DNA from: Chloroflexota bacterium
GTDB lineage: Bacteria > Chloroflexota > Ktedonobacteria > Ktedonobacterales > JADMIN01
DNA: 64,000 nucleotides
Assembly: GCA_021323855.1 (NCBI GenBank)
Contig: JAJPKE010000009.1
Coordinates: 62,001 to 126,000, forward strand
Reading direction: 5' to 3'
The translations under genes and the position numbers were made by a program. The first letter of the stretch is position 1. Each line of letters begins with the position of its first letter. This document shows positions 38,507-45,627 of this stretch, piece by piece. The notes under the pieces were generated by a model that ran no database searches, was not told the DNA's origin, and saw nothing but the letters and a program-made list of their open reading frames with translations.

Positions 38507-38598
38507 ATCAGATAGTTCACTTAGTCGCATTTGCATTTATTGGCGCTTCGTTTAGCGGCTCAGTGAATTCCAGTATAGCATATGGAGGCGTTCCGGTG

Positions 38599-39597
38599 AT
38601 GATCGAAACCCAGGGGTTGCGCAAAGCGTTCGGCAAGCAGGTGGTCCTCGACGGGCTTGACCTGACAGTAGCGGAAGGCATGATCTTCGCGCTGCTCGGC
38701 CCCAACGGCGCGGGTAAGACGACAACGGTACAGATTCTCTCGACACTGATCCGCGCCGATGGCGGCACTGCACGGGTAGCCGGGTATGACGTTGCCCGCC
38801 AACCTGATGCCGTCCGCAAGGTGATCGGCGTGACTGGCCAGTTCTCGGCGGTGGACAATATGCTCACTGGCGAAGAAAACCTGCTGCTGATGGCGGATTT
38901 GCATCATTTGAGCCGTCGTGAAGGCAGAAAGCTCGCCGCTGATCTGCTTGATCGTTTCGAGTTGACCGATGCAGCTAAGAAGACGCCGGTTCAATATTCT
39001 GGTGGCATGCGGCGCCGGCTGGATCTGGCAATGACGCTGGTAGGCAATCCGCGCCTCATCTTCCTCGATGAGCCGACCACCGGGCTGGACCCCCGCAGCC
39101 GCCAGACCATGTGGCAGATCATCCGCGACCTGGTGGCGCGCGGCGTGACGATTTTCCTGACGACGCAATATCTGGACGAAGCCGACCAGCTTGCCCACCG
39201 CATCGCCGTCCTCGACCAGGGCAAACTGGTAGCCGAGGGCACGCCAGACGACCTGAAACGCCGCATTCCTGGCGGACATGTGCGCCTGCAATTCGCCGAC
39301 GAGCGCAGTCTCGGTCTGGCGGCCAGTACGCTGGGTGTTGGCGCAGGAACGGGCGCGCGCGATGACGAGGCGCTCACGCTGCGGGTGCCCACCGATGGCA
39401 GCGTTCAGTCGGTGAAGGCCATTCTCGACCGGCTCGACTACGGAGCCAGCGCGGATACGGCGGTTGAGGATGCGGGCGTGACGGTGCATATCCCCGACCT
39501 CGACGATGTGTTCTTTGCCCTCACTGGCCATATCAATATGCAGAACGACACGCAGAATGGCTCACAACCTGCTAAGCAGAAAGGCGCTGTACGATGA
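38599..39597 (+). CDS. ABC-2 type exporter ATPase (DrrA family)
   Basis: LLGPNGAGKTTTVQILSTL, YSGGMRRRLDLAMTLVGNPRLIFLDEPTTGLDPRSR. Confidence 0.95.
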   Translation: MIETQGLRKAFGKQVVLDGLDLTVAEGMIFALLGPNGAGKTTTVQILSTLIRADGGTARVAGYDVARQPDAVRKVIGVTGQFSAVDNMLTGEENLLLMADLHHLSRREGRKLAADLLDRFELTDAAKKTPVQYSGGMRRRLDLAMTLVGNPRLIFLDEPTTGLDPRSRQTMWQIIRDLVARGVTIFLTTQYLDEADQLAHRIAVLDQGKLVAEGTPDDLKRRIPGGHVRLQFADERSLGLAASTLGVGAGTGARDDEALTLRVPTDGSVQSVKAILDRLDYGASADTAVEDAGVTVHIPDLDDVFFALTGHINMQNDTQNGSQPAKQKGAVR

Positions 39598-40382
39598 GTA
39601 CCCTGGCTTTAACATTTCGTGATTCGCTGACGATGCTGCGCCGTGATACCAAACATTCCCTGCGCAACCTCATGATGACGGTGAGCGGCATATTGACGCC
39701 GACGATCCTGCTGGTACTATTCAACTATGTCTTCGGCGGCGCGATAGGCGCGGGCCTCGGCGGGGGGATACACGGCTCTTACATCAACTATGTCGCGCCC
39801 GCGATTCTGATTATGGCGGTGGGCAGCGGCTGCGCAACAACGGCGATCAACCTGGTGATGGACCTGAACGAAGGCGTCATCAACCGCTTCCGTACGATGG
39901 CGATTGCGCGCTCCTCGGTGCTGAATGGACAGGTGATCGGCAGCGTGATTCGCACACTGGCGAGCGTCGTTCTCGTACTGGGCGCGGCGCTGTTGATGGG
40001 CTTCCGTCCTACCGCAGACCTCCTGGCCTGGATTGAGGCGTTCGGCCTCATCGCGCTGTTTTCCTTCGCTATCACCTGGATGGGTGTCGTCTTCGGCCTG
40101 ATCGGCAAAACACCTGCTGGCGCCAACAGTCTCTCGCTCATCTTCCAGATTCTGTTGCCGTTTACCAGCAGCGCGTTTGTCAGCCCGGACTCAATGGCGG
40201 GCTGGATACGCTGGTTCGCTCAAAACCAGCCCTTCACCGCTGTCATAGATACGCTGCGTGGGTTGTTGCTCGGAACACCCATCGGCAATAGCGCGGTGTT
40301 TGCCATCGCCTGGAGCGTCGGTATTGCGCTGGTTGGATTCATTCTGGCGCGAACGATTTACAACCGCGCCCCCGCAAAATAA
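39594..40382 (+). CDS. ABC-2 type exporter permease (DrrB family)
   Basis: Six hydrophobic segments, LPFTSSAFVSPDSMAGWIRWFAQNQPFTAVIDTLRGLLLG; 4-nt overlap with the ATPase gene. Confidence 0.93.
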   Translation: MSTLALTFRDSLTMLRRDTKHSLRNLMMTVSGILTPTILLVLFNYVFGGAIGAGLGGGIHGSYINYVAPAILIMAVGSGCATTAINLVMDLNEGVINRFRTMAIARSSVLNGQVIGSVIRTLASVVLVLGAALLMGFRPTADLLAWIEAFGLIALFSFAITWMGVVFGLIGKTPAGANSLSLIFQILLPFTSSAFVSPDSMAGWIRWFAQNQPFTAVIDTLRGLLLGTPIGNSAVFAIAWSVGIALVGFILARTIYNRAPAK

Positions 40383-40397: not shown

Positions 40398-41285
40398 TCA
40401 CTGATCTGTCTGGATGCGCTGGCGCAATGCCCAGCGCACCAGCAGCAGGATGGCGAACGACATCACCAGTAAGACGATAGCCAGGGTGATTGCGGCGCTC
40501 AGATCGAGTTCAAATCCCAGATAGATTGCCAGTGGCATCGTCTGGGTGCGGCCAGGGAAGTTACCGGCGAAGATAATGGTTGCGCCAAACTCACCCAACG
40601 CTCTGGCCCATGTCATCAATGCGCCGCCCATCAGCGCCGCGATGCTGAGAGGCAGCGTGATGCGCCCGAAGACGCCGAACGGTCCCGCGCCATCAACTGC
40701 GGCGGCGTCTTCTATGTCATGATTGACGTTGGCAAATGCGGTAGACGCCGCTTTGATATAGAACGGCGCCGCGACAAAGGTTTGCGCCATCACAACTGCG
40801 ACCGGCGTGAAGGCGATGTCAATGCCAAGCGCATTGAGCCAGTGGCCTAGCAGCCCGAAGCGCCCGAAGGCGACGAGCAGCGCAATGCCGGCGACCGCAG
40901 GCGGCATGACAATCGGCAGGTCGAGCAGCGCATCAAGGATGGTGCGTCCAGGGAACGTGCCGCGCGCCAGCAGATAGGCCAGCGGTGTGCCACCAATCAC
41001 CGTCAGGCCCAGCGTGCAGAGCGTCGTCACGAGGCTCAACTGAATAGCCTGCGCGACGGATGGATCAACCAGATGCGCCAGTATATCCGCCGGGGTCGCA
41101 CGCAGCACCAGCGCCAGCAGCGGCAACAGCAGAAACAGCAGAAACGGCAGGCTGGCGAGGAGCAGCGCCACCTTGCGCCAGTCCACTCGATGCCAGGTCG
41201 CCTCCTGGCGGCGCTCATGCCTCGTTTTTAGCAACTGGGTCGCTGCCGTCTCTGCCATTGCTTCTTCCTCACGCCAATTGCTCAA
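40398..41285 (-). CDS. modB: Molybdate ABC transporter permease ModB
   Basis: LGLTVIGGTPLAYLLARGTFPGRTILDALLDLPIVMPPAVAGIALL, TLPLSIAALMGGALMTWARALGEFGATIIFAGNFPGRTQTMPLAIY. Confidence 0.93.
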   Translation of the reverse strand: MSNWREEEAMAETAATQLLKTRHERRQEATWHRVDWRKVALLLASLPFLLFLLLPLLALVLRATPADILAHLVDPSVAQAIQLSLVTTLCTLGLTVIGGTPLAYLLARGTFPGRTILDALLDLPIVMPPAVAGIALLVAFGRFGLLGHWLNALGIDIAFTPVAVVMAQTFVAAPFYIKAASTAFANVNHDIEDAAAVDGAGPFGVFGRITLPLSIAALMGGALMTWARALGEFGATIIFAGNFPGRTQTMPLAIYLGFELDLSAAITLAIVLLVMSFAILLLVRWALRQRIQTDQ

Positions 41286-41321: not shown

Positions 41322-42200
41322 CTAGCTGGCTGGTGGTGTGTACTGTGGCCCCTGGCTGGCCGCAATGAATCCATAGCTTGCCAGCACGTTCTGCCCATCG
41401 CTCGACATCACATAGGCGATGAATTGCTGCGCTGTACTGCTCTGTTTGGAGTTTTTAAGCGGCGCAATGGGATAGGTTGCAATCACATTGAAGGCGTCGG
41501 GAATGGCAATCGTCGTAACGCTATTCGGCTCAGTAGCCGCGTCGGTAGTATAGACAATGCCAGCGTCGCCCTCGCCAAGCGCAATCTTCGACAAAACCGA
41601 CTTGACATCAGTTTCGTATGACACCACATTCTTCAGCACATTCGCCTGATAGGAAGCGCTAAACGATGGATCGGCGCTGGCTTTGGAGAGAAACGTCAGC
41701 GCATAGCCGCCGACTGGCACCGTTTTCGCCGCCAGTACGATCTTGATGCCTGGTTTCGCCAGGTCTTGCAACGTCTGAATATTTGCCGGATTGTTCTTTG
41801 GCACGATAACCACGAGACGATTATGCGCAAACACCTGAACCGCCGAACTGCTGATCTGGCCGCCTTTAACGACGACATTCATCTGCGCGACATTGGCGGA
41901 GGCGAAGACATCAGCAGGCGCGCCCTGCGTAATTTGTCCAGCGAGCGTATCAGAGCCACCAAAATTGAAGCTCACAGTGACGTTGGAGTGGGCGGTGTGA
42001 AACTGGCTGCCAATCTTGGTGAATGCCCCTTGTAGCGATGCGGCAGCGAAGACATTCAGTGTGATGGGCTGCGAGCCGCCACTATTGGTACCGGTACAGG
42101 CGCTTACCGCGAGCAGTAGCGTGATGAGCAGCGATGCGACGAAAAGGTGCGGTGAGCGGACAGCGTGGAACCGGCGCGATGCAGGCTGAGCAGTGACCAT
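41322..42200 (-). CDS. modA: Molybdate ABC transporter substrate-binding lipoprotein ModA
   Basis: Lipobox LAVSACTG, LNVFAAASLQGAFTKIGSQF, FNFGGSDTLAGQITQGAPADVFASAN. Confidence 0.94.
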   Translation of the reverse strand: MVTAQPASRRFHAVRSPHLFVASLLITLLLAVSACTGTNSGGSQPITLNVFAAASLQGAFTKIGSQFHTAHSNVTVSFNFGGSDTLAGQITQGAPADVFASANVAQMNVVVKGGQISSSAVQVFAHNRLVVIVPKNNPANIQTLQDLAKPGIKIVLAAKTVPVGGYALTFLSKASADPSFSASYQANVLKNVVSYETDVKSVLSKIALGEGDAGIVYTTDAATEPNSVTTIAIPDAFNVIATYPIAPLKNSKQSSTAQQFIAYVMSSDGQNVLASYGFIAASQGPQYTPPAS

Positions 42201-42273
42201 GTGTGCAATCCCTCTCTGTTGATGCCGTTGAAATCGTTGTTGCCGTGTCGCTCGATCATGGTTTTGGATAGAT

Positions 42274-42831
42274 TCAGCGTTCTGCCGTTGATGCTGCGAG
42301 TTCCTCCTGGCACTGATCCAGCCAGGGCAAAATGGCTTCGAGTTGCCCCCGGCGAAACTCCAACACCAGGCGGTCGTAGCGCCGTTCATGGCCGAGCGCC
42401 TGAATATCTGTCTCAATATCTGCGATCCACTGCCGGCAGATGGCTTTCTGGCGCTCGATCAATGCCGTTACTGTTGCCGTTCCCTCGCGTGCCGCAAAGA
42501 AGAGCTTGGCGAGGAATTCGAGGCGGAAGTCGCGCCCATGCTCCACCGGCGCGGCGACCCATGCGGCATAAGCCGCCTTGCCCTCAGCCGTGAGGTGAAA
42601 CACCTTACGCGGTGGGCGGCTGCCCTGCGCCTCGGTGACGCTGGTGATATAGCCGGCCTCCTGCAACCTGGTCAGCAGCGCATAGAGGTGGGCCTGTTTG
42701 AGATGCCACACCAGCCCCAGCGCCTCAGCGCGGAGCAACTGCTGGTGCATCTCATAGGGGTGCATGGGATGCTCCACCAGCAGCCCCAGCAGCGCGTGAT
42801 TGATGCCTGTCGGCAATGGTTCAGCAGGCAT
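42274..42831 (-). CDS. PadR-family transcriptional regulator
   Basis: NHALLGLLVEHPMHPYEMHQQLLRAEALGLVWHLKQAHLYALLTRLQEAGYITS wHTH. Confidence 0.88.
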   Translation of the reverse strand: MPAEPLPTGINHALLGLLVEHPMHPYEMHQQLLRAEALGLVWHLKQAHLYALLTRLQEAGYITSVTEAQGSRPPRKVFHLTAEGKAAYAAWVAAPVEHGRDFRLEFLAKLFFAAREGTATVTALIERQKAICRQWIADIETDIQALGHERRYDRLVLEFRRGQLEAILPWLDQCQEELAASTAER

Positions 42832-42851
42832 AATAATACCCACCAGTTGAG

Positions 42852-42868
42852 TACTCAGAACGTGAGTA
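42852..42868. promoter_or_regulatory. Putative PadR autoregulatory operator
   Basis: Perfect inverted repeat TACTCA-GAACG-TGAGTA about 20 nt upstream of the padR start. Confidence 0.5.
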
Positions 42869-43037
42869 AGTGCTGGCAGTGTACGCATGCTGGCTGGCGC
42901 CTGTCAAGAGTCGGTCAAGAGCGGATGTGCGACAATGAAACGGCGCTGACGGCAGGTGCCGTTATGTGGTTTTGAGGTGCTGTAGCGCGGATAAAGTGGA
43001 TGGCAGCGTTGAGACAATGCGGTGAAGGGGGCAAAAG

Positions 43038-43213
43038 ATGGAATTGAGCGCACGCAACTAGTTACCTGGAACAATCAAACAGGTGACGTTGGGATCAGTG
43101 ATGGCAGAGGTAGTAGTGGAACTCAGTGGCGGGCAGGAAGTGGTATCAGCTATCACACGTGGCTCGGTGGAGCGACTCAATCTGCAGGTGGGCGACCAGG
43201 TGACTGTGATTAT
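43038..43213 (+). pseudogene. Molbindin (Mop domain), N-terminal fragment, with in-frame amber codon, interrupted by an IS200/IS605 element
   Basis: Hand translation from ATG 43038: MELSARN[TAG 43059-43061]LPGTIKQVTLGSVMAEVVVELSGGQEVVSAITRGSVERLNLQVGDQVTVI(I). Classic Mop sequence pattern. Confidence 0.9.
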
Positions 43214-43341
43214 AGGAAAGCCCGTAAAACCGCTGTGCCTTTAGGCTGACGAAGGCCATGCGGATGAAAGGTGCTCTGTCCTGGCTTTAGCCAATAGTAC
43301 GTGCCCTCGACGACTTGTTGATATTGCTGTAGAATATCTAC

Positions 43342-43749
43342 ATGGGCAATAACAAGAATCTCGACTATCAACACGACGAACACCACGTCCATCTGATTGT
43401 CTATCATCTCATCTGGTGCCCCAAGCGGCGGCGCAAGGTGTTGGTAAACCAGATCGGGGCGCGTTGTGAGGCGTTGATTCGCCAGAAGTGCGAGGAGAAG
43501 GGCTGGACAATCTTGGAACTGGCCGTCCAGCCCGATCATGTGCATCTGTTCGTGCGGGTGTGGCCGTCCGTAAGCGCCGCTGACGTGGTGAAAGAGTGCA
43601 AAGGGCTATCCGCCTACCGGCTCCGGCAAGAGTTCCCTGAACTCTTGAAACTGCCGTCGCTCTGGACGCGCTCCTATTTTGCCTCAACAGCAGGCAACGT
43701 GAGCAGTGAGACGATTCAGCGGTATATCGCTGCCCAATCTACCAGTTAA
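43342..43749 (+). CDS. tnpA: IS200/IS605 Y1 transposase TnpA
   Basis: HUH motif QPDHVHLFVRVWP, C-terminal catalytic Tyr helix SSETIQRYIAAQ, HHVHLIVYHLIWCPKRRRKVL. Confidence 0.96.
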   Translation: MGNNKNLDYQHDEHHVHLIVYHLIWCPKRRRKVLVNQIGARCEALIRQKCEEKGWTILELAVQPDHVHLFVRVWPSVSAADVVKECKGLSAYRLRQEFPELLKLPSLWTRSYFASTAGNVSSETIQRYIAAQSTS

Positions 43750-43764
43750 AGAAGGTGCGTCATC

Positions 43765-44886
43765 ATGCTGATCCTTGAATACAAACTCGATGGCAAACCA
43801 ACGCAATACGCGGCCATTGAGGAAGGTATCCGTGTGGTGCAGTTCCTCCGCAACAAGTGTCTACGCGCCTGGGTAGACCGTATAGAGGAAGGCAAAAATT
43901 GCTTTGCCATGAACTCGTATACGGCAGTCCTGGCGAAACAGTACCCCTTTGCGGCTCGGCTCGGCTCACAGGCACGGCAGGCCAGCGCAGAACGTGCCTG
44001 GAAAGCGGTACAACGGTTCTATGACAACTGCACGGCCAAGAAACCGGGCAAGAAGGGCTATCCGCAGTTCCAGCACAACAACCGCTCGATTGAATACAAG
44101 GTCGCTGGCTGGAAACTCTCCTTGGATGGCAAGCACATCACCTTCACCGATGGGTTGGGTATCGGCACCCTACGGCTCATAGGGACGCGCAGCATTGAAA
44201 CCTTCCCACTGGCCCAAATTAAGCGGGTGCGGATTGTGCGTCGTGCCGATGGCTACTATTGCCAGTTCTGTGTTGATGCCCAGCGCAACGTCGTGCATGT
44301 GCCTACCGGCAAACAAGTGGGCATTGATATGGGTCTCAATGCCTTCTATACCGATAGCGAGGGGGAGACGGCAGAAAACCCGCGCCACTATCGCAAAGCG
44401 GAAAAGCAGGTGAAGCGGCTGCAACGGCAGGTGTCACGGAAAAAGAAAGGCTCGAAGAATCGCGCCAAAGCGCGAAAGAAGCTCGCCAGAAAGCACTTGC
44501 ACGTCCAACGGCAGCGTGAAGATCATGCGAGAAAACTCGCATGCGCGCTCGTCACGTCTCACGACCTGATTGCCTATGAAGATTTGCAAGTGCGCAACAT
44601 GGTGAAGAATCACTACCTCGCCAAGAGCATCAGCGATGCCGGCTGGTCACAGTTCTTGGGCTGGGTGCGCTATTATGCGGCGCTGCATGGCATTGAGTGC
44701 GTCGCCGTCCCACCCGCCTACACCTCACAGAACTGCTCAGGCTGTGGAACCTATGTCAAGAAAAGCCTGAGCGTGCGCACGCATAGTTGCCCGCACTGTG
44801 GCCTGATCTTGGACCGGGACCAGAACGCAGCACTCAATATCTTAGAAGCAGCACTCCGTATCCTGGGGCACAGGAAAACGGGCTAG
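43765..44886 (+). CDS. tnpB: RNA-guided nuclease TnpB (OrfB_IS605 / Cas12f-like)
   Basis: RuvC motifs VGIDMGLNAFY, HDLIAYEDLQVRNMV, LDRDQNAALNIL; zinc ribbon CSGCGTYVKKSLSVRTHSCPHCG. Confidence 0.96.
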   Translation: MLILEYKLDGKPTQYAAIEEGIRVVQFLRNKCLRAWVDRIEEGKNCFAMNSYTAVLAKQYPFAARLGSQARQASAERAWKAVQRFYDNCTAKKPGKKGYPQFQHNNRSIEYKVAGWKLSLDGKHITFTDGLGIGTLRLIGTRSIETFPLAQIKRVRIVRRADGYYCQFCVDAQRNVVHVPTGKQVGIDMGLNAFYTDSEGETAENPRHYRKAEKQVKRLQRQVSRKKKGSKNRAKARKKLARKHLHVQRQREDHARKLACALVTSHDLIAYEDLQVRNMVKNHYLAKSISDAGWSQFLGWVRYYAALHGIECVAVPPAYTSQNCSGCGTYVKKSLSVRTHSCPHCGLILDRDQNAALNILEAALRILGHRKTG

Positions 44887-45013
44887 TCTGGCGTGTCCAG
44901 CTAGCGAACGCTTGGGGACAGAGGGGCCGCTGGCGATAGGCAGCAATGGCTATCGGTAAGCCTGCTGGATGAACCAAGAATCTGCTATGGCTTGAGCCTA
45001 TGCAGAGTGTCAA
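44887..45013 (+). ncRNA. Predicted omega RNA (reRNA) 3' segment at the IS right end
   Basis: Position between the tnpB stop and RE; inverted repeats including CGATAG/CTATCG and the imperfect RE hairpin 44982-45005; by analogy to ISDra2 TnpB. Confidence 0.5.
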
Positions 45014-45044
45014 AAAGTCCACCGAAGTCATGCTCGGCAAATAA
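45014..45044 (+). pseudogene. Molbindin (Mop) C-terminal fragment
   Basis: (A)AAGTCCACCGAAGTCATGCTCGGCAAATAA = KSTEVMLGK*, which completes the ...QVTVII fragment left of the IS in frame. Confidence 0.88.
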
Positions 45045-45172
45045 GCACTCTTGGTATCGCGGGCGTCGTTTTTGCCAACGCGCCGATCCTTGATGGGCGC
45101 ATGTATAGGATGAGCGCGATGATAGAGCAGCGTCATCGCGCTCATCCAGCCGCGTAATGTGCTATCTGGCAG

Positions 45173-45364
45173 TTATGCCGCCTTCGCGCGTCCACCCATC
45201 ATAGACATAACCACACCGATGACGAGTACTACGGCGCCGACCACACCGACGATGAGGCTAATGTGGGCCGTGCTGCCGAGGAAGTGCTTCACGAAATGAT
45301 CAATAGCGGCAGCCGCGATGACGAGAATGCCAATGATGGCTACAACATAGCCGACAGACTTCAT
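45173..45364 (-). CDS. Small two-TM hypothetical protein
   Basis: MKSVGYVVAIIGILVIAAAAIDHF...ISLIVGVVGAVVLVIGVVMSMMGG; aggagga RBS upstream. Confidence 0.75.
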   Translation of the reverse strand: MKSVGYVVAIIGILVIAAAAIDHFVKHFLGSTAHISLIVGVVGAVVLVIGVVMSMMGGRAKAA

Positions 45365-45627
45365 AGTCTCCTCCTGTGTGCTGAACACACAAATTAAGTA
45401 GCTCGAAGACAACGTGCCGGGATTCCAGATTGTCTACCAGAGGCACAACGCACCCTGGCTGAGGCGAGTATAGCGATATCCGCCTAATCTGTCAACGTAC
45501 ATTTGTCCTCAGAGGAACTATTGGTTTATACTGCTGGAATGGTGTGGGAAAAATGGCTCATGGCGGCAGCCATATAATGACATGCTGGATAGATACTAAC
45601 GGCCCGGCAGAGCGGAGATTAACCCAG

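What the first reader, a model, noticed from the sequence alone, without database searches (positions are those of the whole stretch)
43038..45044. Molbindin (Mop) gene split by an IS200/IS605 element; both halves rejoin exactly in frame
Left of the IS, reading from ATG 43038 gives ...NLQVGDQVTVI(I). Right of it, 45014-45044 encodes KSTEVMLGK*. Joining ...GTGATTAT (ends 43213) to AAAGTCCACC (from 45014) gives V-I-I-K-S-T-E-V-M-L-G-K*, a canonical 68-codon Mop protein end. This fixes the IS boundaries at 43214-45013 without a target duplication, as expected for this family. The gene lies divergent to padR-modA-modB, so it fits a molybdate-homeostasis locus. The supplied ORF track reports neither fragment.
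Basis: partly seen in the sequence, partly recalled or inferred. Interest (0 to 1): 0.68.

Follow-up and report, generated by a model that had tools for sequence, protein, structure and literature searches.

The report
Mop gene broken by IS608-type element

Summary
The split is real. An 1800-bp IS200/IS605 element of the IS608 type (TnpA, TnpB, both hairpin ends) occupies 43214-45013 inside codon 59 of a 68-codon mop gene. Eighteen right ends in related genomes stop at the same base, and 29 intact orthologues read straight through the junction. It is the only stand-alone Mop found in this genome: the gene looks dead twice over. The padR/modAB link is supported in one relative (padR-modA-modB-mop on one strand), not in most. 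New detail: the left flank is TTAT where 79 of 88 related left ends have TTAC, and the left guide is AAAA instead of AAAG, the base expected to pair with the changed flank base. Orthologues always carry Ile/Val/Phe at codon 59, so TTAT was probably the original target. This may be a natural change of target specificity, but with one example (Fisher p=0.09) it may equally be decay. The left hairpin has a unique 10-nt insertion. Overall: ordinary gene disruption by a known kind of element.

The parts
43038..43213 (+). 5' part of mop (codons 1-58 and two bases of codon 59), interrupted by TAG at codon 8
43059..43061 (+). amber stop codon TAG at mop codon 8 (Gln or Arg codon in all intact orthologues)
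43210..43213 (+). TTAT, the left flank / cleavage tetranucleotide (TTAC in 79 of 88 related left ends)
43214..45013 (+). IS608-type IS200/IS605 element, 1800 bp, single copy in this genome
43226..43229 (+). left guide GL = AAAA (AAAG in 81 of 88 copies), directly 5' of the left hairpin
   Evidence: role by comparison with IS608 (PMC5934647)
43230..43263 (+). left hairpin (IPL); contains a 10-nt insertion TGACGAAGGC (about 43247-43256) seen in no other copy
43342..43749 (+). tnpA, Y1 HUH transposase, 135 aa; H66/H68, Y128, Q132 present
43765..44886 (+). tnpB, RNA-guided endonuclease, 373 aa; RuvC residues D188, E272 and the DRD motif at 350-352 present
44850..45013 (+). right end: probable reRNA scaffold (conserved folded region, 18 of 37 pairs with double changes), ending in the right hairpin
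44978..44981 (+). right guide GR = GAAT
44981..45006 (+). right hairpin (IPR)
45010..45013 (+). right cleavage site TCAA, last bases of the element
45014..45044 (+). 3' part of mop: last base of codon 59, codons 60-68 and TAA; first ~16 nt would be the TnpB guide (inferred)
42274..42888 (-). padR-type regulator, divergent neighbour
41322..42416 (-). modA (mechanical ORF, true start probably further downstream in the gene), molybdate-binding protein
40398..41285 (-). modB, molybdate permease

Best explanation
An IS608-type single-strand transposon inserted 3' of TTAT in codon 59 of mop, a small molybdate/tungstate-binding (molbindin) gene, by the peel-and-paste route: the TnpA-made circle joins behind a tetranucleotide read by the left guide, with no target duplication. 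This removes the last strand and the oxyanion-ligand lysine (Lys60) from the product. mop also has a nonsense mutation at codon 8, so it is a pseudogene. Shown by sequence: boundaries, frame, both lesions, intact-looking catalytic residues, guides and hairpins. Inferred: the mechanism (from IS608), loss of function, and TTAT as the original target (about 60%). Whether the AAAA guide caused the choice of TTAT is open (about 35%).
For: Ends match 18 right-end and more than 80 left-end copies in related genomes. TnpA matches IS608 TnpA structures (2a6m, 2vhg) and TnpB matches ISDra2 TnpB (8bf8), with catalytic residues present. Guide/cleavage pairs are GAAT/TCAA as in IS608 and AAAA/TTAT in place of AAAG/TTAC. 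The rejoined protein is Mop, and 29 orthologues run uninterrupted through the junction. TAG at codon 8. No other stand-alone Mop in the genome. No group I intron or other Rfam RNA that could splice the element out. Codon 59 is Ile/Val/Phe in every intact orthologue, which fits ATT-AT|A and not ATT-AC|A (Thr).
Against: No same-species empty allele was available; the closest orthologue is about 82% identical in protein. The reconstructed codon 59 would be ATA, a minor Ile codon here (12 of 161 Ile codons in seven neighbouring ORFs), so bases next to the junction may have changed after insertion. Three related copies have TTAT with the ordinary AAAG guide.
Confidence: 0.9

Rival explanations
1. 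TTAT and the AAAA guide are both decay: the element landed behind TTAC with an AAAG guide, and C-to-T and G-to-A changes followed, as did the amber (CAG to TAG) and the left-hairpin insertion.
For: All three point changes are G:C to A:T; TTAT with AAAG occurs in 3 other copies and AAAA with TTAC in one; the left hairpin is altered; association of AAAA with TTAT is only p=0.09.
Against: Requires Thr at codon 59 of the intact gene, never seen in 29 orthologues; both ORFs of the element are intact.
Confidence: 0.4
2. A reversible switch: precise excision of the element restores mop in part of the population.
For: IS200/IS605 excision is precise and the flanks rejoin in frame; TnpA looks intact.
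Against: TAG at codon 8 remains after excision; single copy, no excised allele seen; left hairpin altered.
Confidence: 0.04
3. A truncated but useful Mop is made from the internal GTG at 43083 and ends inside the element (53 aa).
For: ORF 43083-43244 is open.
Against: It would lack the N-terminal SARN segment (Ser4, Arg6) and Lys60, positions that line the oxyanion site in the homologue Tub (PMC11980592).
Confidence: 0.04
4. The amber codon is a sequencing or assembly error and mop was intact until the insertion.
For: Draft assembly of 45 contigs at 89% completeness; no reads available.
Against: No frameshift or other defect in the surrounding mop codons, as would be expected of a low-quality stretch; a clean one-base change from CAG.
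Confidence: 0.1

Closest known systems
IS608 (ISHp608) of Helicobacter pylori, IS200/IS605 family
   Same: TnpA and TnpB, Y1 HUH transposase, right cleavage site TCAA with guide GAAT, left guide 5' of a hairpin, insertion 3' of a tetranucleotide without duplication
   Different: Left flank TTAT and guide AAAA in the window instead of TTAC/AAAG; 10-nt insertion in the left hairpin
Copies of the same subfamily in the same bacterial order (G007:C197, G019:C131, G015:C176 and others)
   Same: 67-76% DNA identity, same ends, same reRNA-like right end
   Different: TTAC/AAAG in nearly all; many copies are deleted or non-autonomous
Mop / MopII molbindins (1fr3 Sporomusa, 1gug Clostridium) and Tub (9beb)
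   Same: 68-codon single TOBE domain, SARN-type start, K-S-T-E/D-V-M-type end
   Different: Interrupted by an IS at codon 59 and by TAG at codon 8
Engineered retargeting of IS608 by changing the left guide (described in PMC5934647)
   Same: A guide base change matched by the corresponding target base
   Different: Here it would be natural, and is seen once only

Membership tests
IS200/IS605, IS608 group | TnpA Y1 HUH transposase with HUH, Tyr and downstream Gln | tested here: met
   PF01797 129.5 bits, NF033573 144 bits, alignment to 2vhg/2a6m; H66/H68/Y128/Q132
IS200/IS605, IS608 group | Subterminal hairpins, no target duplication | tested here: met
IS200/IS605, IS608 group | Right end TCAA with guide GAAT | tested here: met
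   compared with PMC5934647
IS200/IS605, IS608 group | IS608's own target TTAC with guide AAAG (varies between members of the wider family, e.g. TTGAT in ISDra2, so not a defining feature of the family) | tested here: not met
   Window has TTAT and AAAA; relatives TTAC 79/88, AAAG 81/88; ISDra2 TTGAT
IS200/IS605, IS608 group | Transposition or excision activity | not testable with these tools
   single copy in the genome; no reads
TnpB RNA-guided nuclease | RuvC D, E, D residues and zinc ribbon | tested here: met
   NF040570 282 bits; alignment to 8bf8
TnpB RNA-guided nuclease | reRNA from the right end, guide from the flank | tested here: inconclusive
   Conserved foldable right end with covarying pairs; no Rfam match; no RNA data
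Mop (molbindin) | Single TOBE/Mop domain of about 68-70 aa | tested here: met
   rejoined sequence with X at codon 8: PF03459 70.5 bits, TIGR00638 69.6 bits
Mop (molbindin) | Intact reading frame | tested here: not met
   TAG at codon 8 and IS at codon 59; it is a mop pseudogene
Mop (molbindin) | Binds molybdate or tungstate | not testable with these tools
   assay needed
IStron (IS with group I intron) | Group I intron allowing splicing | tested here: not met
   no Rfam match to any intron in 42800-45300

The most novel reading that the evidence does not exclude
A natural one-base change of the left guide (AAAG to AAAA) has shifted this IS608-type lineage from TTAC to TTAT targets, and the mop insertion is a product of that shift: a wild counterpart of engineered IS608 retargeting. 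It would also confront TnpB with a donor site whose adjacent motif is TTAT.
Probability: 0.33. Interest if true: 0.42.

Novelty: new member of a known kind. Interest (0 to 1): 0.22.

Why it matters
As a gene disruption it is ordinary: one more IS200/IS605 insertion into an accessory gene, with a second inactivating mutation in the same gene. The guide/flank pair is a small natural data point on whether IS608-type elements change target specificity by single guide mutations, which can be tested with sister copies. The correction matters in practice: 'excision restores Mop' must not be claimed.

Tried and rejected
Other copies of the element in the same genome to define the ends: none, only short TnpB 3'-end matches, so ends were defined from relatives. 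A same-species empty site: none held. IMG/VR search with TnpA gave four distant copies only. Rfam for an intron or a listed omega RNA: nothing credible. A phylum-wide pattern search for more AAAA-guide copies: none beyond L279. Statistical link between AAAA and TTAT: not significant alone (p=0.09). Two papers with the detailed base-pairing of IS608 (PMC3201880, PMC3597680) are not held, so the pairing of guide base 4 with flank base -1 is inferred from the two ends (GAAT/TCAA and AAAG/TTAC) and from the A16 to T-3 and A17 to T-4 pairs given in PMC5934647.

Full report
Observation. The window at 43038-45044 was read directly and translated. From ATG 43038 the frame reads MELSARN*LPGTIKQVTLGSVMAEVVVELSGGQEVVSAITRGSVERLNLQVGDQVTVII and then runs into an insertion element. 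From 45014 it resumes as KSTEVMLGK*. Joining 43213 to 45014 restores a 68-codon frame that matches TOBE (PF03459, 70.5 bits) and Mop (TIGR00638, 69.6 bits, above its cut-off) and solved Mop structures. It missed that codon 8 is TAG (43059-43061), where intact orthologues have a Gln or Arg codon.

Boundaries. The element is single-copy in its own genome, so ends were set from relatives of the same order; two of those genomes share contigs with Thermogemmatispora tikiterensis and a Ktedonobacteria MAG, which places the window in or near the Ktedonobacteria. Eighteen right ends align up to window 45013 and diverge from the next base on, all ending ..GTGTCAA. Left ends begin directly after TTAC in most copies, which in the window corresponds to 43214 after TTAT. 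No target duplication is present.

What the element is. TnpA (43342-43749) is a Y1 HUH transposase aligned to IS608 TnpA structures, with H66/H68, Y128 and Q132 in place. TnpB (43765-44886) aligns to ISDra2 TnpB with the RuvC residues in place. The right end has guide GAAT, a hairpin and cleavage site TCAA, identical to the IS608 scheme described in PMC5934647. The last ~160 nt form a conserved fold in 17 sequences with 18 of 37 pairs showing double changes, as expected of a TnpB reRNA scaffold (compare PMC8612924); no Rfam family matches credibly and there is no intron.

The left end is where the window differs. Among 88 left-end copies in the order (window included), 79 have flank TTAC and 81 have guide AAAG. 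The window has flank TTAT and guide AAAA. By the pairing logic of both IS608 ends, guide base 4 pairs with flank base -1, so a G-C pair has become an A-T pair. Only one other AAAA guide was found (L279, flank TTAC, decayed copy), and three other copies have TTAT with AAAG. The association is thus not significant alone (Fisher p=0.09), and copies within a genome are not independent. The stronger argument comes from the host gene: all 29 intact orthologues have Ile, Val or Phe at codon 59 and none has Thr, so the undisturbed gene more probably read ATT-AT(A) than ATT-AC(A). I take TTAT as the likely original target (about 60%) and guide-driven targeting as possible (about one third). The left hairpin also carries a 10-nt insertion (about 43247-43256) that no other copy shows; in a DNA fold the basal stem survives with a 10-nt loop in place of 4 (one of the two relatives folded there prefers a different fold, so the energies are only a guide). 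It may weaken excision.

What happened to mop. The insertion falls between Ile59 and Lys60. In the homologue Tub, Ser4, Arg6, Ser40 and Lys60 line the oxyanion site (PMC11980592), so the interrupted product would lose a ligand and the last strand. With TAG at codon 8 as well, excision alone would not restore the gene. Which lesion came first cannot be told. No other stand-alone Mop was found in the genome; the other TOBE hit lies in a 401-aa ORF.

Genome context. padR, modA and modB lie divergent to mop in the window. In G004, a same-family genome, padR-modA-modB-mop run on one strand with mop 16 nt after modB. G007 has a modB-like gene next to mop; the other 14 relatives examined show no window-type mod gene in the stretch read. 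The molybdate link is therefore supported, but the divergent layout is not conserved.

Verdict. A real, correctly bounded insertion of an IS608-type element into a mop gene that is also broken by a stop codon. Known kinds of gene and element; modest interest through the guide/flank variant.

Noticed in passing
L209, L223, L241, L254, L262, L264, L275 (genomes G012, G015, G017, G019): Very short elements of 46-48 nt bounded by TTAC and TCAA (or a near variant) that look like the left guide and half-hairpin fused to the right half-hairpin, probably single-hairpin deletion products of this family.
   Followed up: partly
L127-L131 (G012): Non-autonomous copies of about 330 bp with both ends but no tnpA/tnpB that keep the reRNA-like right end.
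   Followed up: partly
window 43247-43256: Ten-base insertion TGACGAAGGC in the left hairpin, absent from all other copies examined.
   Followed up: partly
window 38563-40382: DrrA/DrrB-type ABC exporter genes run towards modB on the opposite strand; no modC was seen beside modA-modB.
   Followed up: no
window 45173-45412: Small 78-79 aa ORF on the minus strand with hydrophobic segments and no Pfam match, just right of the split mop.
   Followed up: no
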